Source of the DNA: Promicromonospora sp. MEB111
GTDB lineage: Bacteria; Actinomycetota; Actinomycetes; Actinomycetales; Cellulomonadaceae
Assembly: GCF_030209445.1 (NCBI RefSeq)
Contig: NZ_JARVSD010000019.1
Coordinates: forward strand, 62,001 to 126,000
Length of the DNA stretch: 64,000 nucleotides
Direction of reading: 5' to 3'
Below are positions 8,101 to 39,870 of the stretch, one piece after another. The translations under genes were made by a program, and so were the position numbers. Each line of letters starts with the position of its first letter. Position 1 is the stretch's first letter. Under the pieces are notes generated by a model. It searched no databases. It was not told the origin of the DNA and worked only from the letters and a program-made list of their open reading frames with translations.

Positions 8101-8184
8101 TGACTCACCGCACCGCGCTCGCCGAGTCAGCGGGGCAGTCCGACCGAGCGACTGACTCGCCGCATTCCGCGCGGCGAGTCAGTC
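8101..8184. repeat. Two TGACTC/GAGTCA dyads between the LPMO genes
   Basis: The 406-bp gene-free stretch 7880-8285 holds the copy 1 promoter, these dyads and the copy 2 terminator. The second dyad is a perfect 14-bp inverted repeat (8150-8163 with 8171-8184, 7-nt spacer) built on GACTGACTCGCCGC. The first is TGACTC at 8101-8106 with GAGTCA at 8124-8129. Both share the half-site TGACTCrCCG. They lie 90-170 bp upstream of the -35 of copy 1, so they could be an upstream operator or hairpins; no T-tract follows. Confidence 0.7.
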
Positions 8185-8210
8185 ACGCGGTCGTCTGTCG
8201 TAGGACAGGC

Positions 8211-8248
8211 GAACGGCCGGCCTCCCCGGCGGGGGAGACCGGCCGTTC
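8211..8248 (-). terminator. Hairpin terminator after LPMO copy 2
   Basis: GAACGGCCGG (8211-8220) pairs with 8239-8248, and the inner CTCCCC (8222-8227) pairs with 8232-8237 across one mismatch, giving a 17-position GC-rich stem with a 4-nt loop. It begins 38 nt after the LPMO stop codon. There is no strong U-run, as is common in GC-rich actinobacteria. Confidence 0.75.
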
Positions 8249-8285
8249 CGGCCGTCGTTCCTGGCGGCCGTCTACCGGCGAGCGG

Positions 8286-8894
8286 TCACAGCTGGGCGGC
8301 CAGCAGGCGCCCGTCGACCGCCGTCTGGCCGGCGCTCGGGCTGCCACCACCGATGTTGACGTCCATGCAGGCGTAGAACGCCATGGCGGTGTCGTACACG
8401 TTCCACCGGGCGAGGATCGTGTGGTTGCCGCTCGGCAGGCCCGTGAGGGTGTGCGTGACGGTCGCGGGCGGTGTGGCCCCGTTGTCGTTCACCGTCTTGA
8501 AGAGCTGGCCGTCCACGAAGTACTCCCAGCTGGCCGTCCGGTGGAAGGCCGTCAGGGTCCACCGGAAGGTGTGCGTGCTGCTGATGCTGGTACGGGGCCA
8601 GGCAAGGGAGCTGTTGTCCAGCGTGGTGAAGCGGCTGCCGCCCGAACAGAGCTTCGACCCCTTCGGTGCCTCCACGCTCTGCGGCTCCCATTCGACGCCG
8701 TTGCAGGACCAGCTCACGGTCCGCTTGGCGCAGTGGTCCTGTCGGCTCGGTGGCGAGACGACCCAGCCGTGGGCCTCGGCCCTGGGGGTCAGGGCGTTCG
8801 GTGTGGCGACCAGCGCCGTCAGGGTCAGGGCCAGGACGGCGAGGACGCCGAGCAGGACTCTGACGACGGGTGTCTGCGGTGCGGTGACTCTCAT
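8286..8894 (-). CDS. Secreted AA10 lytic polysaccharide monooxygenase (copy 2)
   Basis: 202 residues, single AA10 domain. The signal peptide ends RAEA, exposing His42 (HGWVV); His118 in TAFHRTASWEYF completes the copper histidine brace. ARWNVYDTAMAFYACMDV carries the axial Phe. Start chosen at ATG 8894 because GAGGTGA lies 6-7 nt upstream; the alternative GTG 8903 would lie within that Shine-Dalgarno. The protein aligns without gaps to copy 1 at the brace residues, so this is a tandem duplication that has diverged (VVSPPSRQDHC against ITSPPSRADHC). Both genes point the same way but each has its own promoter, and a terminator lies between them. Confidence 0.96.
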   Translation of the reverse strand: MRVTAPQTPVVRVLLGVLAVLALTLTALVATPNALTPRAEAHGWVVSPPSRQDHCAKRTVSWSCNGVEWEPQSVEAPKGSKLCSGGSRFTTLDNSSLAWPRTSISSTHTFRWTLTAFHRTASWEYFVDGQLFKTVNDNGATPPATVTHTLTGLPSGNHTILARWNVYDTAMAFYACMDVNIGGGSPSAGQTAVDGRLLAAQL

Positions 8895-8913
8895 GGGGCT
8901 CACCTCGTGATCT

Positions 8914-9023
8914 GTAGTGGGGAACTACGAACTTGGGAACTTCCTGGAGTGCTCCTGAGTGCTCGGGTGCGACAGACACGACGCTAGAAAGGGGGAGGAC
9001 CCGGCGACAAGTAGGGCAACTAC
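8914..9023 (-). promoter_or_regulatory. Promoter of LPMO copy 2 with two GTAG-N5-CTAC-type dyads
   Basis: Minus-strand TTGTCG (9010-9005), 18-bp spacer and TAGCGT (8986-8981) form the promoter, with a leader of about 80 nt. A dyad GTAG-GGCAA-CTAC (9011-9023) abuts the -35 on its upstream side, and a related dyad GTAGT-GGGGA-ACTAC (8914-8928) lies in the leader about 20 nt before the start codon. Possible operator pair. Confidence 0.55.
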
Positions 9024-9061
9024 GTACTCGCGCGGGCCCGAGATCCGCGGATCGGCGCCGG

Positions 9062-9982
9062 TTACGGCGTGCCGAGCACCGCGTCGCAGGCCTGGAGCAG
9101 GCGCTGCCGGAGCGCGCCGGACCGGCGCGCGAAGTCGCGCTGCCGGCGCACGTACTCGGCCTTGCCGTCGGGCGTCTCGATCCGGATGGCGGCCACGCCG
9201 TACTCGGAGACGTCGTACGGGGAGGCCGCCATGTCGGTCCAGCGGATGTCGCGGGCCAGCTCGAACGCGTCGAGCAGCAGGTCGCCGGGCACGGCCGGGC
9301 CGAGCTTGAGGCACCACTTGTAGAGGTCCATGTTGGCGTGCAGGCAGCCCGGCTGCTCCATGCCGACCTGGGCGGCGCGCGTCGGCTGGAGCTGGTTGCG
9401 CGACGTCGCCTCCGGCGTGAAGAACCGGAACGCGTCGAAGTGCGAGCAGCGCACGGGGTTGGCCTCGACCACGGCGTCGGTGCCCTCGTGCCCGAGCCGG
9501 AGCGGCAGCGGGTGCCGCTGGTCGCGGCCCGCCTCGCGGTCGCGGTAGACCATGGCCCACTCGTGCAGCCCGAAGCAGCCGAACGTGCCGGGCCGCGACG
9601 CCGTCGCCGACAGCAGCTCGCGGACGTACCGCACGGTGTCGCCGCGGTCGGCGAGGAACGCGTCGAGGTCGAGCGTCACGGCGCCGTCCGGCCGGGACAC
9701 CCGGTGCCACCGCCAGGCGGTGCGGTCCTCCGGGTCGAGCACGCCCCCGCCGTCGGGCAGCGCGAGGGCGACGCCCGCACCCGGGTGCCAGCGGCGCAGG
9801 TGTGCGACGCGCGTGGGGTAGTACGTGAACAGGAAGTCCTCGATCGCGTGCTTGCGCCCGGCCGCGCGGGCGGCGCGCCAGACCGCGGTGAGCGCGTCCG
9901 CGCGCCCGGCGTGGGCGGCGGCGAGGGGCACCCACTCCTCGGGGAGCAGCGCCGCGGTCGGCCTGCCGAGGACTGTGGTCAC
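9062..9982 (-). CDS. Conserved actinobacterial protein, often labelled 3-methyladenine DNA glycosylase
   Basis: 306 residues, soluble. Contains HAIEDFLFTYYPTRVAHLRRWHPGAG near the N-terminus, LHEWAMVYR in the middle and GCLHANMDLYKWCLKLGP towards the C-terminus, the conserved blocks of an actinobacterial family of this length. Databases commonly call such proteins 3-methyladenine DNA glycosylase, but I see no helix-hairpin-helix glycosylase motif, so function should be considered unknown. The GTG 9982 start follows TACCCT by 6 nt with no Shine-Dalgarno, predicting a leaderless transcript. Divergent from the aldo/keto reductase gene. Confidence 0.8.
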   Translation of the reverse strand: MTTVLGRPTAALLPEEWVPLAAAHAGRADALTAVWRAARAAGRKHAIEDFLFTYYPTRVAHLRRWHPGAGVALALPDGGGVLDPEDRTAWRWHRVSRPDGAVTLDLDAFLADRGDTVRYVRELLSATASRPGTFGCFGLHEWAMVYRDREAGRDQRHPLPLRLGHEGTDAVVEANPVRCSHFDAFRFFTPEATSRNQLQPTRAAQVGMEQPGCLHANMDLYKWCLKLGPAVPGDLLLDAFELARDIRWTDMAASPYDVSEYGVAAIRIETPDGKAEYVRRQRDFARRSGALRQRLLQACDAVLGTP

Positions 9983-32875: not shown

Positions 32876-33511
32876 CTATCGCTCGGCCCAGGCCCGTTCG
32901 AGCACCCCTAGGAATGTGGCTGTGGTTTGCGCGCCGGAGAGGCCGTACTTCCGGTCGACCACGAAGAATGGCACGCCTGTGATGCCCAGCCGGGCCGCCT
33001 CGTCCTCGTCCGCACGCACGTCCTCGGCGTAGGCACCGGCGTCCGTCAGGACGGCGCGGACCTCGGCCTCGTCGAGCCCCGCGCGGATGGCGAGCTCCAC
33101 CTGGTGCTCCGGGTCGTAGATGCTTCGCTCGGCGGAGAAGTTGCCCTCGTAGAACAGAGCGAGCAACTCGTCGCCGACACCACGGTCGGCCGCCAGGCGC
33201 AGCAGCCTGTGCAGGTCGAAGGTGTTGCCGTGATCGCGGAAGTCGACGAGGTAGTCGAGCCCTTCGGCTCGGGCGAGTTGGGCGAGGTCCTCTTCGGCGG
33301 CGCGGGCCTGCTGCGGTGTCATGCCGTACTTCTCCGCGTGCTTCGGCCCGGTCGTCGGGCGCGTCTCGGCCAATCGGCGGTCGAGCTCGAAGGAGCGGTG
33401 GACCACCTCGACGTCGTCGCGGTGGGGGAAGGCGACCAGAGCCTTCTTGAAGCGTGCCTTGCCGATGAAGCACCAGGGGCAGGACACGTCGGACCAGATC
33501 TCGACGCGCAA
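32876..33511 (-). CDS. DsbA-family (FrnE-type) oxidoreductase
   Basis: 211-residue cytosolic thioredoxin-fold protein with helical insert. SCPWC at residues 10-14 is the active disulfide (CPWC), and GITGVPFFVVDRKYGLSGAQ contains the cis-Pro loop and the C-terminal signature of the FrnE/2-hydroxychromene-isomerase group. The start is TTG 33511, supported by AAGGAG about 9 nt upstream and by no in-frame ATG/GTG. Its promoter (-10 TACACT, 33614-33609) is flanked by two 17-bp palindromes identical in type to those at the divergent SnoaL gene, so both are likely repressed by the TetR protein at 34246. Thiol-redox or electrophile stress role is inferred. Confidence 0.9.
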   Translation of the reverse strand: MRVEIWSDVSCPWCFIGKARFKKALVAFPHRDDVEVVHRSFELDRRLAETRPTTGPKHAEKYGMTPQQARAAEEDLAQLARAEGLDYLVDFRDHGNTFDLHRLLRLAADRGVGDELLALFYEGNFSAERSIYDPEHQVELAIRAGLDEAEVRAVLTDAGAYAEDVRADEDEAARLGITGVPFFVVDRKYGLSGAQTTATFLGVLERAWAER

Positions 33512-33581
33512 TGCACTTACTCCTTGGGTTCTGCGGGATGCGCCGACCTCTGCCGGGTCCGACGGGGCGGGCGCTCGTTTA

Positions 33582-33742
33582 CGGACGACAGTCGTCCGCT
33601 TCTGTTGGAGTGTAAGCGGACGACGCTCGTCCGTCTGGTTGTAGTGGGCAGATCATGTGTCGCCTGGCTCACAGCAGCCTCCGGGAATTCGGACGATGGC
33701 CGTCCGGTTAGGCTCGGTACGCAAGCGGACGAGAGTCGTCCG
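33582..33742. promoter_or_regulatory. Four 17-bp operator palindromes in two mirror-image promoters
   Basis: Palindromes CGGACGAnnnTCGTCCG lie at 33582-33598 (8-bp arms), 33617-33633, 33690-33706 (6-bp arms) and 33726-33742. Minus-strand -10 TACACT (33614-33609) sits between the first two; plus-strand TAGGCT (33709-33714) sits between the last two. In both, 2 bp separate the -10 from the upstream palindrome and 10 or 11 bp from the downstream one. This is a classic double-operator arrangement, most simply bound by the TetR protein encoded at 34246. Confidence 0.88.
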
Positions 33743-33791
33743 AATGTCTTGGCGCCCGGTACGGCGCCGGAACACCCGAGGAGACATGGAT

Positions 33792-34253
33792 ATGAGTGAC
33801 CTGGCTGAGCTCACCCGGCGCCTGGACGCGCTGGAGGCGGTCGAGGAGATCAAGAAGCTGAAGGCGCGGTACTTCCGCTTCGTGGACGAGAAGAAGCATG
33901 ACGAGCTCGCGGCGCTGTTCACGCCGGACGCCACGCTGGTGACCGACGGGATCACCTGGGGTTCCCCTCGTGAGTTCGCGGACACCATCCGCGACCTGAC
34001 GGGTGACGCGCCGTCGGTGCACCACGGGCACATGCCGGAGATCGAGATCCTGGGCGAGGACTCGGCGTCCGGTATCTGGGCGATGGAGGACTTGCTGACC
34101 TTCCCCGTCGGGCCCGAGGCCCCTGAGGGGCACAACGGTTACGGGCAGTACCGTGAGACCTATCGCAAGGTCGACGGCCGGTGGCTGATCGACTCGGTGC
34201 TGCTGACTCGCCTGCGGATGGACGCTCTGGAGAACTGGGACCCGGATGCCTGA
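33792..34253 (+). CDS. SnoaL-like / NTF2-fold protein
   Basis: 153 residues. An N-terminal helix (LAELTRRLDALEAVEEIKKLKARYFRFVDEKKHDELAALFTPDATL) then cone-shaped beta sheet, the SnoaL_4 layout, with VHHGHMPEIEILGEDSASGIWAMED and a C-terminal WLIDSVLLTRLRMD. Members act as hydratases, isomerases or small dehydratases; the substrate is unknown. ATG 33792 is preferred to ATG 33786 because GAGGAG (33778-33783) lies 8 nt before it. The gene overlaps the TetR gene by 8 bp and has two operator palindromes at its promoter. Confidence 0.88.
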   Translation: MSDLAELTRRLDALEAVEEIKKLKARYFRFVDEKKHDELAALFTPDATLVTDGITWGSPREFADTIRDLTGDAPSVHHGHMPEIEILGEDSASGIWAMEDLLTFPVGPEAPEGHNGYGQYRETYRKVDGRWLIDSVLLTRLRMDALENWDPDA

Positions 34254-34875
34254 CCTGGATACCACCACGGATGTCCGCGCCGACGCGCGGCGCAACCGGC
34301 GCCAGCTGATCGTCGCGGCCCGGGAAGCTATCGCCTCCCGCGGCCTCGACGTATCGGCGCTGGACATCGCGACCGCCGCGGGAGTGGGGGTGGGCACCCT
34401 CTACCGCCGCTTCGGCACCAAGGACTCGCTTTTGGACGCCGTCGTCGTCGGCCTGTACGACGAGATGCTCGAAAGCGCGCAGGAGTGCCTGCGCATCGAG
34501 GATCCCTGGGAAGGGCTGAGCCGGTTCGTCATGGAGCTGGCCGGCGCCCACCGCGACAGCCGAGGTGTGGCCGAGGTGACCGCCGCGTGCGACACCGTGC
34601 CCACGCCCGAGATCGAGGAGCGGACCACGGCCCTGCAGGACGCCGTCATCCGGCTCACCGACCGGGCGTACGCGGCCGGCGCGCTGCGCGCGGACGTGAC
34701 GTGGCAGGACGTCATGATCAGTTCGCGCGCGGGGTTGGACACCGACCACTGCCTCGGCGTCGACGCGGGACCCGACGGATGGCGCCGCGTCATCACGCTC
34801 CTCCTTGACGGGATGCGCGCCCCCGGACACACGCCCCTGAGCGGCACCGCGCCCCACCTGCACGACAACTCCTAG
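34246..34875 (+). CDS. TetR/AcrR-family repressor of the dsbA/snoaL cluster
   Basis: 209 residues. The N-terminal helix-turn-helix domain reads RRQLIVAAREAIASRGLDVSALDIATAAGVGVGTLYRRFGTKDSLLDAVV; the C-terminal ligand domain is all-helical (about 70-209). Its start overlaps the SnoaL stop by 8 bp, so it is translated with the gene it probably controls. The four palindromes at 33582-33742 have the size and symmetry of TetR operators and flank the -10 boxes, which makes this the prime candidate. Ligand unknown. Confidence 0.93.
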   Translation: MPDLDTTTDVRADARRNRRQLIVAAREAIASRGLDVSALDIATAAGVGVGTLYRRFGTKDSLLDAVVVGLYDEMLESAQECLRIEDPWEGLSRFVMELAGAHRDSRGVAEVTAACDTVPTPEIEERTTALQDAVIRLTDRAYAAGALRADVTWQDVMISSRAGLDTDHCLGVDAGPDGWRRVITLLLDGMRAPGHTPLSGTAPHLHDNS

Positions 34876-34955: not shown

Positions 34956-35906
34956 ATGAGAGCCATCGGAATGACGACATTCGGCGGACCAGACGTCCTG
35001 CGCGAGCTCGACCACCCCGAGCCGGAGGTGGGTGACGATGAGGTACGGATCCACGTGGCGGCCGTGACCGTCAACAACGGCGACCTCAGGATGCGCCGCG
35101 GCGAGGTGCACCAGCTTCGCCACGACGCCCCGTGGGTCCCGGGGATGGAGGCCGCGGGGGTCGTCGACGCCGTCGGAACGCGGGCTGCGGACCGGTTCCG
35201 CGTCGGCGAGGCGGTCACGGCACACGTGTGGCCGATCGACCCACGCGGTGGCGCCTACGCGGAGCTCACCGTCGCCGACATGAACCGTGTGGTGCGCACA
35301 CCCCACGGCGCCTCGATCGCGCAGGCGGCGACCCTGCCGATGAACGGTCTGACCGCCTACCAGACCGTCGAGGCGATGGGGCTCGAGCGGCCGGGCACGG
35401 TGGCCGTGATCGGCGCCGCGGGCGCGGTCGGCGGCTACATCGTGCAGCTCGCCGTCGCCGCCGGGCACCGCGTGGTCGCGGACGCCGCGGACACGGACCG
35501 GGCGCTGGTCGAGAGCCTCGGCGCGCACGTCGTCGTCCCGCGCGGGGACGGTGTGGTCGACGCGATCCGTGCGGCGGTCGGCGAGGTGGACGCCGTCGCC
35601 CTGGCAGCCATGCCCACGCTCGATGTCGCGGAGATCGTCCGCCCCGGTGGTGCCGTGGCGTCCGTCGTCGGGTTCGGCGATCCCGGCCAGGTCATGGCCG
35701 CGCGCCGCCGTCGCGTCCGGCTCGCTCCCGTGGTGGTGGACGCCATCGCCGAGCCGGCACCGATGCTCCGGCACCTCGGCGAGCTCACCGAGCGCGGCGA
35801 GATCACGCTACGGGTCGCGGACGAGCTCCCGGCCGAGGACGCATCCGAAGCCCATCGCCGTCTGGAGTCGGGCGGCGTCCGCGGGAGGATCGTCCTCAGG
35901 TTCTGA
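34956..35906 (+). CDS. Zinc-independent MDR (quinone oxidoreductase-type) reductase
   Basis: 316-residue NADPH-dependent medium-chain reductase. GroES-like N-domain (MRAIGMTTFGGPDVLRELDHPEPEVGDDEVRIHV), nucleotide motif AVIGAAGAVGGYIVQLAVAAGHRVVA and C-terminal LRVADELPAEDASEAHRRLESGGVRGRIVLRF are typical of QOR. The zinc ligands of alcohol dehydrogenases are absent. GAGGAA lies about 7 nt before ATG 34956. 80 bp after the TetR gene, same strand, so possibly in the same operon; no palindrome of the 33.6-kb type precedes it. Its 3' end overlaps a pseudogene tail. Confidence 0.92.
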   Translation: MRAIGMTTFGGPDVLRELDHPEPEVGDDEVRIHVAAVTVNNGDLRMRRGEVHQLRHDAPWVPGMEAAGVVDAVGTRAADRFRVGEAVTAHVWPIDPRGGAYAELTVADMNRVVRTPHGASIAQAATLPMNGLTAYQTVEAMGLERPGTVAVIGAAGAVGGYIVQLAVAAGHRVVADAADTDRALVESLGAHVVVPRGDGVVDAIRAAVGEVDAVALAAMPTLDVAEIVRPGGAVASVVGFGDPGQVMAARRRRVRLAPVVVDAIAEPAPMLRHLGELTERGEITLRVADELPAEDASEAHRRLESGGVRGRIVLRF

Positions 35907-36268
35907 GGCGGTGCCGCGATCCAGGAGTGGGCCCGGCGCCGGGCCGGCCCACTCCCGGGCCGCCGAAAGGCCACGGAGGCTGCTGGGCGCGTACCAGCTC
36001 GACCACCGGTATCAGCCGGTCGGTCATGCTCTGGTACCCAGCGAACTGCGGCTGGACGGCGGACTGCTTTGGCGAGGTACTCCTCGCTTCCGCCCTTGCT
36101 GGCGAAGGCGAGGATGCGGCCGTTCTCACCTAAGTGGACCAGGGGCGTGATCCGCTCCTTGACGGACTTGGCGCCGACGTTGTGCACCAGGACCAGAGGC
36201 TTGTCCGCGAAGACGCCTCCGGCGCGGCCGCCGTTCGCACGAAACTCGGCGATCACGGTCTGGTTCAT
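35896..36268 (-). pseudogene. Decayed deazaflavin (F420)-dependent nitroreductase (Ddn/Rv3547-like)
   Basis: From ATG 36268 the N-terminus MNQTVIAEFRANGGRAGGVF then GAKSVKERITPLV and ILAFASKGG match the Ddn/DUF385 family. The homologous chain then jumps directly to its C-terminal part, KQSAVQPQFAGYQSMTDR, LIPVVELVRA, which is in a different minus-strand frame from about 36085 to 36000. So the middle (the PDWYHNL region and following beta strands) is deleted and the frame is shifted. The downstream frame runs on to 35896 without a native end. Non-functional remnant; base composition here is slightly less GC-rich than around it. Confidence 0.8.
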
Positions 36269-38394: not shown

Positions 38395-39870
38395 ATGACC
38401 AACCTCGCTGACGAGTCCGTGACGACCCGGTCCGCCGAGCTCGACGTCGACCTCGCGGTGGTCGGCTTCGGCAAGGGCGGCAAGACCCTCGCGGCCACCA
38501 TGGCCCGCCACGGCAGCCGGGTCGCGATGATCGAGCAGTCCGACCGCATGTACGGCGGGACGTGCATCAACATCGGGTGCGTCCCCACCAAGGCCCTCGT
38601 GCACGACGCCGAGAACGGCTCGGCCGACGTCCCCGGTCCGGACCGGTACCGTCGCGCCGCGGAGCGCACCGACGCCCTGACCACGCTGTTGCGCGGCAAG
38701 AACTTCGCGATGCTCGACACCCTCGACACCGTGACCGTCATCACCGGCACCGCGGCCTTCGCGGACCCCCACACCCTGGTCGTCACGGCCGGCGACGACA
38801 CCCTGCGGGTCACCGCGCGGACGATCGTCGTCAACACCGGCGCCGATCCCGAGCTCCCGCCGGTCCCGGGACTGCGCGAGAGCGAGCGCGTGGTCACCAG
38901 CACCCAGCTGCTCGCCCGCACCGAACGGCCCGACGAGCTCGTCGTCCTCGGCGGCGGGTACGTCGCCGTCGAGTTCGCGTCGATGCACGCCGCGTTCGGC
39001 GCGCGCGTGACCCTCCTCGCCCGGGGGCCGCGCATCCTGCGGGCCGAGGACGACGACGTCGTCGCCACCGCCACCGAGATCCTGACCGACGCGGGCGTCA
39101 CGATCCGCACGGGAGCCACGGTCACCGGCGTCGCCGACGAGGACGGCGTCGCCGTCGTCAGCTACACCGATCAGGCAGGCGGGCCGCAGACGGTCCGGGG
39201 CGACACGGTGCTCGCCGCCCTGGGACGTCGTCCGCACACCGCCGGTCTCGGTCTCGACGCCGCCGGGATCCGGACGGACGCCCGCGGCGCCGTCGTGGTC
39301 GACGAGCACCTGCGCACCACCCAGCCGCACGTCTACGCGGTCGGTGACGTCAACGGCGGGCCGCAGTACACCTATGTCTCGCTCGACGACCACCGGATCG
39401 TGCTCGACCACCTCACCGGGGAGGGCCACCGCACCACCACGGACCGCAGGGCCGTCGCCTCCGCGCTCTTCATGACCCCGCCCCTGGCGCGGGTCGGCCT
39501 CACCGAGGCCGAGGCCCGCGCGTCGGGCCGCCCGCTCCTCGTCGCCCGGAGGCGGGTCGCCGACATGGCGACCGTGCCCCGGGCGCGCATCGTCCACGAT
39601 CCGCGGGGCGTCATGAAGGCGGTCGTCGACGCCGAGACCGATCAGATCCTCGGCGTCACGATGCTCAGCCACGACGCCCACGAGACGATCAACACGGTCG
39701 CGCTCGCCATGCGCCACGGCGTGACGGCCGGCGAGCTGCGCGACGAGATCTACACCCACCCGTCCATGACCGAGGCCCTCAACGACCTGTTCGCCAACCT
39801 CCGGCCGGTCGAGGACCCGGTCGACGACGGTGCGCCCGGCCGGTCACACGGACCGGCCGGGACCGAGTGA
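38395..39870 (+). CDS. rclA: RclA-like FAD/NAD(P)H disulfide oxidoreductase
   Basis: 491 residues in the class I pyridine-nucleotide disulfide oxidoreductase family. VVGFGKGGKTLAATMARHG binds FAD, MYGGTCINIGCVPTKALVHDA holds the CxxxxC redox pair, and VVLGGGYVAVEFAS binds NAD(P)H. VGDVNGGPQYTYVSLDDHR and VFMTPP-like ALFMTPPLARVGLTEAEAR are diagnostic of RclA rather than of lipoamide or glutathione reductases. E. coli RclA counters hypochlorous/hypothiocyanous acid and reduces copper. An N-terminal extension of about 15 residues is present. ATG 38395 follows CAAGAT by 6 nt. Confidence 0.88.
   Translation: MTNLADESVTTRSAELDVDLAVVGFGKGGKTLAATMARHGSRVAMIEQSDRMYGGTCINIGCVPTKALVHDAENGSADVPGPDRYRRAAERTDALTTLLRGKNFAMLDTLDTVTVITGTAAFADPHTLVVTAGDDTLRVTARTIVVNTGADPELPPVPGLRESERVVTSTQLLARTERPDELVVLGGGYVAVEFASMHAAFGARVTLLARGPRILRAEDDDVVATATEILTDAGVTIRTGATVTGVADEDGVAVVSYTDQAGGPQTVRGDTVLAALGRRPHTAGLGLDAAGIRTDARGAVVVDEHLRTTQPHVYAVGDVNGGPQYTYVSLDDHRIVLDHLTGEGHRTTTDRRAVASALFMTPPLARVGLTEAEARASGRPLLVARRRVADMATVPRARIVHDPRGVMKAVVDAETDQILGVTMLSHDAHETINTVALAMRHGVTAGELRDEIYTHPSMTEALNDLFANLRPVEDPVDDGAPGRSHGPAGTE

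What the first reader, a model, noticed from the sequence alone, without database searches (positions are those of the whole stretch)
33582..33742. Mirror-image double-operator promoters for a DsbA/SnoaL/TetR/MDR cluster
Four 17-bp palindromes CGGACGAnnnTCGTCCG flank two divergent -10 boxes (TACACT 33614-33609 minus, TAGGCT 33709-33714 plus). The geometry repeats almost to the base: 2 bp from upstream palindrome to -10, and 10 or 11 bp from -10 to downstream palindrome; centre-to-centre 35 and 36 bp. This is direct in the sequence. That a TetR repressor encoded in the same cluster binds them, silencing a FrnE-type thiol oxidoreductase, an NTF2-fold enzyme and perhaps a quinone oxidoreductase, is inference. 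The cluster looks like a small inducible detoxification or redox module I do not recognise as described.
Basis: partly seen in the sequence, partly recalled or inferred. Interest (0 to 1): 0.8.

Follow-up and report, generated by a model that had tools for sequence, protein, structure and literature searches.

The report
Paired-operator TetR detoxification regulon
A soil actinobacterium carries four copies of a DNA docking site around two back-to-back promoters; the same site, promoter layout and repressor gene recur in related bacteria in front of varying redox and drug-pump genes, so this looks like an undescribed but ordinary kind of chemical-sensing switch.

Summary
Three exact copies and one one-mismatch copy of CGGACGAnnnTCGTCCG lie at the stated coordinates; the three exact ones are the only ones in the 6.23 Mb host genome (0.09 expected). 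With its flanks the site is a 23-bp palindrome. In 27 of 28 site pairs a TAnnnT -10 box lies inside the pair at 2, 6 or 7 bp from one palindrome (2,000 shuffles: mean 2.2, maximum 9). The pairs front SnoaL, DsbA, SDR and MFS genes; three lie outside the tetR cluster, two of them in front of the same SDR gene.

Best reading: the TetR dimer represses promoters sandwiched between two operators, and an unknown small molecule releases it. Binding, repression and ligand are inferred, not shown. The 2-bp mirror geometry is that of Promicromonospora; relatives mostly have 7 bp. Some results cut against a tight coupling (G930, G868). New member of a known kind, with unusually variable targets.

The parts
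32876..33511 (-). DsbA/FrnE-like thiol oxidoreductase gene (TTG start, CPWC motif); judged cytosolic because the domain begins at residue 3
   Evidence: Pfam DSBA E 1.3e-36, residues 3-202; PDB 3gl5 SCO1869 E 6.5e-78 and FrnE E 3.3e-52; TTG start; CPWC in 7 of 8 stretches including the window's, the eighth being a partial match
33579..33601 (.). operator 1 (17-bp core 33582-33598), downstream of the minus-strand -10 box
33609..33614 (-). putative -10 box TACACT of the dsbA-side promoter
   Evidence: same layout in P. thailandica L038
33614..33636 (.). operator 2 (core 33617-33633), upstream of the minus-strand -10 box
33687..33709 (.). operator 3 (core 33690-33706, one mismatch), upstream of the plus-strand -10 box
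33709..33714 (+). putative -10 box TAGGCT of the snoaL-tetR promoter
   Evidence: related layout in other loci
33723..33745 (.). operator 4 (core 33726-33742), downstream of the plus-strand -10 box
33786..34253 (+). [quoted passage not shown]
   Evidence: Pfam SnoaL_4 E 6.9e-24; BaiE E 2.6e-21
34246..34875 (+). TetR-family regulator gene (SbtR-like C-terminal domain); start overlaps the snoaL stop
   Evidence: Pfam TetR_N 7.1e-13, TetR_C_43 5.1e-09; clade
34956..35906 (+). MDR-family quinone-oxidoreductase-like gene, 80 bp after tetR, no operator of its own; co-transcription is assumed
   Evidence: Pfam ADH_N and ADH_zinc_N_2; same position in L038

Best explanation
A TetR-family repressor encoded at 34246-34875 binds 23-bp palindromes (AAnCGGACGAnnnTCGTCCGnTT). 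Two operators flank each -10 box: one lies over the -35/spacer side and the other just after the expected transcription start. A dimer on either or both would keep RNA polymerase off. Through the two mirrored pairs it silences dsbA/frnE to the left, and snoaL, tetR itself and probably the MDR gene to the right. A small hydrophobic or electrophilic compound, or its product, is expected to bind the C-terminal domain, release the protein from DNA and switch on the redox enzymes (in relatives also an efflux pump). Shown: sites, geometry, conservation with this TetR clade, and recurrence before varying gene families, including three pairs outside the tetR cluster. Inferred: binding, repression, the ligand and the detoxification role.
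For: Operators at 21 of 22 TetR orthologue loci. TetR clade of 22 monophyletic against 28 paralogues (FastTree local support 0.871); with L046, which also has a site, 0.998. Double operator in 17 of 22 TetR-bearing genomes, 0 of 22 in the backwards control; 24 of 27 pairs lie within 2.8 kb of tetR, and in G785 and G881 the pair lies far from tetR in front of the SDR gene that is clustered with tetR in other species. -10 box inside the pair in 27 of 28 pairs. In the host four sites stand out, all here. Five homologous MDR-SDR clusters with no relative of this TetR beside them show no pair and no site scoring above 13.1, against a median of 30 for the 62 sites. In 12 loci tetR has one site at -36 or -37, in 11 of them with a TAnnnT box and the start codon right behind it (my reading).
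Against: No binding or expression data. In G930 the TetR is present with one site, but its distant MDR-SDR cluster has none of note. G868 also has only the site in front of tetR. The pair at L044 -119 has no -10 box, and the box in L045 faces away from snoaL. Four of 28 paralogue loci have a two-mismatch site, and in two of them (L020, L026) it overlaps the start of that paralogue's gene, so related TetR proteins may use similar sites. Some weak sites in the counter-test clusters (13.1, 9.1) exceed the lowest score among the 62 sites, 7.7. The window's MDR gene has no operator of its own. No strong -35 element was found.
Confidence: 0.82

Rival explanations
1. The TetR-operator system is right, but the genes form a catabolic or tailoring pathway (for example for a steroid- or polyketide-like compound) and not a detoxification response; the inducer is then the pathway substrate.
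For: SnoaL is closest among solved structures to BaiE, a steroid dehydratase, and all 10 SnoaL stretches keep the residues aligned with BaiE's Tyr, Asp, His and Asp (that these are BaiE's catalytic residues is recalled). SDR and MDR oxidoreductases and one amidohydrolase occur with the sites.
Against: The gene set differs from species to species, unlike a fixed pathway, and includes a DHA2 efflux pump above NCBIfam's cut-off. None of the operator-fronted genes identified here is a ring-cleavage or CoA enzyme, but not all neighbouring genes were annotated.
Confidence: 0.3
2. The palindromes are bound by a different regulator encoded elsewhere, and the neighbouring TetR is a bystander.
For: Palindrome ownership is not proven biochemically; the host has 9 matches to this TetR at E 1e-10 or better, and two paralogue loci have a similar site at the gene start.
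Against: Sites are found at 21 of 22 loci of this TetR clade, sit in front of tetR itself, and no pair is seen at five homologous gene clusters without it alongside.
Confidence: 0.06
3. The palindromes act as RNA hairpins or terminators, not as DNA operators.
For: The scan flagged 33582-33598 as terminator-like (1 found, 0.3 expected).
Against: The sites lie on both sides of -10 boxes, many upstream of the predicted start, in pairs at constrained spacing, with conserved A/T flanks outside the stem.
Confidence: 0.02

Closest known systems
Tn10 TetR/tetO (tetR-tetA)
   Same: Two palindromic operators in the intergenic region repress divergent promoters, including the regulator's own (passage read in PMC3511530).
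   Different: Different operator sequence; four sites as two separate promoter pairs; targets here are mostly redox enzymes; tetR lies downstream of snoaL and is not divergent from a pump gene.
MAB_4384 of Mycobacterium abscessus (PDB 5OVY)
   Same: Best solved relative of the window's TetR by sequence (phmmer E 3.4e-25); repression of divergent genes from a palindrome; the authors' model has two dimers on one operator (passages of PMC5895659).
   Different: Its operator is one 27-bp degenerate palindrome in front of an MmpS5/MmpL5 pump; no SnoaL, DsbA, SDR or DHA2 targets in the passages seen.
Streptomyces TetR regulators with several palindromes, e.g. SCO7222 (3 sites), SCO3367 (2 sites)
   Same: Several copies of one palindrome in a divergent intergenic region; targets include oxidoreductases and MFS pumps (passages of PMC3511530).
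   Different: Other operator sequences; neither a conserved -10 sandwich nor targets swapped across species is described in the passages seen.
SbtR of Thermus thermophilus (organism recalled)
   Same: C-terminal domain hit PF21597 TetR_C_43, SbtR-like, E 5.1e-09.
   Different: Domain-level similarity only; its operator was not compared here.

Membership tests
TetR-family transcriptional regulator | N-terminal TetR_N helix-turn-helix domain | tested here: met
   PF00440 E 7.1e-13, 48.6 bits against cut-off 24
TetR-family transcriptional regulator | TetR-type C-terminal domain | tested here: met
   PF21597 36.7 bits against cut-off 27; ligand binding itself not tested
TetR-family transcriptional regulator | Palindromic operator near its own or neighbouring promoters | tested here: met
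   21 of 22 orthologue loci
TetR-family transcriptional regulator | Dimer binds operator; ligand releases it | not testable with these tools
   needs gel shift and ligand screen
Paired-operator (tetO-like) repression | Two operators at the regulated promoter | tested here: met
   28 pairs examined, 25 with centres 34-40 bp apart and 3 at 46 bp. Not met at tetR's own promoter in 12 loci (one site), and only single sites were found in G868 and G930
Paired-operator (tetO-like) repression | -10 element lies between the operators | tested here: met
   27 of 28 pairs with TAnnnT at 2, 6 or 7 bp; shuffles mean 2.2, maximum 9; in L045 the box faces away from the gene
FrnE/SCO1869-type DsbA | DSBA domain with CxxC, no export signal | tested here: met
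   absence of a signal judged only from the domain starting at residue 3
BaiE-like dehydratase (SnoaL_4) | SnoaL_4 fold and the aligned Tyr-Asp-His-Asp residues | tested here: met
   (10 of 10 stretches); that these are the catalytic residues is recalled
BaiE-like dehydratase (SnoaL_4) | Dehydratase activity on a steroid | not testable with these tools
   -
PIG3-type NAD(P)H quinone oxidoreductase (TIGR02824) | Score above the curated cut-off | tested here: not met
   129.3 bits against 296.8; only MDR superfamily membership is claimed

The most novel reading that the evidence does not exclude
One TetR orthologue group and a transplantable double-operator promoter form a portable plug-in regulon. 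Across Micromonosporaceae, Promicromonospora and Microbacterium the cassette has been placed before at least four unrelated gene types (SnoaL, DsbA, an SDR or SDR-MFS unit, an amidohydrolase), with MDR genes carried along downstream, sometimes far from tetR. All would respond to one chemical signal, perhaps a quinonoid or steroid-like natural product, and could be read out by cloning the cassette before a reporter.
Probability: 0.45. Interest if true: 0.5.

Novelty: new member of a known kind. Interest (0 to 1): 0.42.

Why it matters
It turns a hand-read motif into a defined regulon with a named regulator, a 23-bp operator, a promoter rule and target genes across several genera. The ligand of one TetR clade becomes directly testable, and a compact operator-promoter pair becomes available as a biosensor. 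The varying targets show how one chemical sensor can recruit different enzymes and pumps. It does not overturn a known principle.

Tried and rejected
Genome-wide regulon in the host: not supported. Outside the cluster two sites fit the 23-bp motif at three mismatches, against four matches in the backwards control. Other TetR proteins of the same broad family sharing the operator: 4 of 28 paralogue loci have a two-mismatch site and none is paired; two of the four (L020, L026) overlap the start of the paralogue's gene, so a looser kinship of sites stays possible. Plasmid carriage: 7 of 72,556 records match at E 1e-20 or better, the best 40.7% identical, so no plasmid-borne orthologue was found. 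A sigma-70 consensus scan gave no promoter. Literature: I saw only listings (20 of 56 papers; 20 of 725; 12 of 14; 10 of 50; 10 of 129; 10 of 538), and one search found 0; none of the listed titles and abstract starts describes this regulon or motif. That is no proof that none exists. Rows dropped before the pair count: L092 and L046, and neighbouring sites with centres outside 33-46 bp (L038 63 bp; L046 19 bp). The 62 sites were chosen by a match of the 17-bp core within two mismatches, so conservation of the core is partly by construction; that of the flanks is not. The paralogue half was wrong, because loci on the minus strand were read in the wrong direction; it was redone and is not used.

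Full report
Observation. They are far beyond chance. In the window there are 3 exact matches against none in 100 shuffles, and the exact motif occurs three times in the 6,233,258-base genome, all here, where 0.087 are expected from composition. With up to two mismatches the 17-bp motif occurs 87 times in the genome, so single degenerate sites mean little; the clustering and the exactness are the signal. The host is taken to be a Promicromonospora species: the genome table puts G194 in the same genus, and G194's contig has the length and TetR identity of the P. thailandica record L038.

Genes. On the minus strand lies a DsbA-family protein close to SCO1869 and FrnE. On the plus strand follow a SnoaL_4/NTF2 protein closest among solved structures to BaiE, a TetR-family regulator whose start codon overlaps the snoaL stop, and an MDR-family oxidoreductase 80 bp further on. 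The MDR protein stays below the curated cut-off of all 17 NCBIfam models it hits, so only superfamily membership is claimed.

Relatives. A scan of a collection of 84,980 species genomes with the TetR protein, which finds close relatives only, gave 12 loci: eight with 71-95% identity (Promicromonospora thailandica, Plantactinospora, four Micromonospora loci, Asanoa, Microbacterium timonense), one at 49% (a Solirubrobacterales MAG) and three partial Streptomyces hits. In the host's family 2 of 221 genomes have an orthologue (100% and 95%); the other hits listed there are 42% identical or less, and the list was cut. In the family of Plantactinospora, taken to be Micromonosporaceae, 18 of 354 genomes match at E 1e-40 or better, one of these (G669) at only 44% identity. 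In samples of 396 order-level and 394 class-level genomes only the host itself does. Among the groups sampled the regulator is thus patchy and commonest in Micromonosporaceae.

Phylogenetic footprint. I oriented 24 loci by tetR: 22 distinct orthologue loci (66-100% identity), L046 (49%) and L092 (45%). Sites with at most two mismatches, paired or just in front of tetR, occur in 21 of the 22. The exception (L094, the same locus as L041) is a contig end with about 200 bases upstream of tetR. L046 has an exact site and a weaker one; L092 has none near tetR. From 62 sites the motif is AAnCGGACGAnnnTCGTCCGnTT: the positions of GGACG and its complement are 98-100% conserved, with A at 90% and 73% in the two flank positions. 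Because sites were picked by the core, only the flank conservation is independent of the choice. The 22-member clade is monophyletic against 28 paralogues (FastTree local support 0.871), and 0.998 with L046. As a control, 4 of 28 paralogue loci contain a two-mismatch site, none paired; in L020 and L026 it overlaps the start of the paralogue's own gene, so a looser kinship of sites outside the clade is not excluded.

Geometry. I examined 28 pairs: 25 at tetR loci and 3 outside. Centres are 34-40 bp apart in 25 and 46 bp in 3. A TAnnnT box starts 7 bp from one palindrome in 20 pairs, 2 bp in 6 and 6 bp in 1; one pair has none. With 2,000 shuffles of the spacer letters the mean is 2.2 and the maximum 9. 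By my reading the box faces a neighbouring gene of the set in 26 pairs; in L045 it faces away. In the 7-bp kind the palindrome's own CGGACG would lie 18 bp upstream of the box, in the place of a -35 element (inference). In front of tetR itself 12 loci have a single site at -36 or -37; by my reading, 11 of them have a TAnnnT box 6-8 bp after it and the start codon 6-7 bases after the box, which suggests a leaderless, self-repressed tetR.

Targets. Operators precede SnoaL, DsbA, SDR, SDR-MFS, MFS and tetR genes. MDR genes lie downstream of tetR on the same strand in 7 of 8 loci that have a good match, and on the other strand in L045. The MFS protein exceeds NCBIfam's DHA2 efflux cut-off (247.8 against 230.2). 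The double operator occurs in 17 of 22 TetR-bearing genomes, 27 pairs in all, with none in the backwards control. Of these, 24 lie within 2.8 kb of tetR. In G785 and G881, whose tetR stands with a single site, the pair is far away in the genome or on another contig and directly in front of the SDR gene (81% identical to that of Plantactinospora); in G816 a pair 9 kb from a tetR precedes an amidohydrolase. Five genomes lack a pair: G619 (contig end), G623 and G669 (distant TetR), G868 and G930 (single site only).

Counter-test. Of 180 genomes of the same family, 9 have the SDR at E 1e-100 or better. The six genomes with an SDR at least 81% identical all hold the TetR; one of them is the query's own. 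Five homologous MDR-SDR clusters have no match to this TetR in the 14-17 kb fetched around them; three of them are in G706 and G709, which are not among the 18 genomes with a TetR hit. None of the five has a pair; their best matrix scores are 13.1, 9.1, 5.5, 1.8 and -1.0, against a median of 30 and a range of 7.7-36.9 for the 62 sites. Two of the five lie in genomes that do have the TetR: the second copy in G702, whose tetR-linked copy has a pair, and the one in G930, which is evidence against a fully tight coupling.

Mechanism and physiology. The simplest reading is steric repression: one dimer over the upstream side and one over the start region of each promoter, released by a ligand. The enzymes and the pump fit removal of a redox-active or hydrophobic compound. 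One Micromonosporaceae locus (L087) also has a rifampin monooxygenase gene (NF033145, 915 bits, cut-off 800) just upstream of the operator pair, MFS and tetR; this hints at aromatic polyketides, but the other loci were not scanned for that family. The BaiE-like SnoaL leaves a steroid-like substrate open; passages on BaiE and SteC were read in PMC13101464 and on Hsh2/BaiE in PMC12175502.

Against the literature. Paired operators at divergent promoters are the original TetR arrangement (passage in PMC3511530). The nearest solved relative, MAB_4384 (5OVY), uses a single 27-bp palindrome bound by two dimers in the authors' model (passages of PMC5895659). The papers listed (partial listings) and the empty one search showed nothing on this operator or gene set. 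Verdict: a well-supported new TetR regulon of a known kind; notable for its varying targets and its recurring promoter sandwich; ligand unknown.

Noticed in passing
window 35990-36268 (-): N-terminal half of an F420H2-dependent quinone reductase-like protein (PF04075, profile positions 5-63 of 130), which then runs into unrelated sequence; looks like a truncated gene.
   Followed up: partly
window 38395-39870 (+): FAD oxidoreductase of the RclA/MerA group (525.5 bits to RclA, below its cut-off of 740), a second redox-stress-type gene about 2.5 kb past the cluster.
   Followed up: partly
L087 (G816), 8173-9600 minus strand: Rifampin monooxygenase (above curated cut-off) just upstream of an operator pair, a DHA2-like exporter and tetR; a possible clue to the ligand class.
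   Followed up: partly
L036 (G402), 1501-1555: A pair of palindromes with centres 38 bp apart at the start of a reading frame that looks like an MFS transporter by eye (not tested), with no -10 box and no TetR relative within 1.5 kb; the only genome besides the host among 396 phylum genomes with a hit.
   Followed up: partly
L104 / L128 (G816): A double operator in front of an amidohydrolase (PRK08204 family, above cut-off), a target type seen only once.
   Followed up: partly
L043, L090, L081, L083: L043 and L090 hold two diverged SnoaL genes; the minus-strand copies there and in L081 and L083 read AHSGAMPEIT where the others read VHHGHMPEIE, which suggests specialisation.
   Followed up: no
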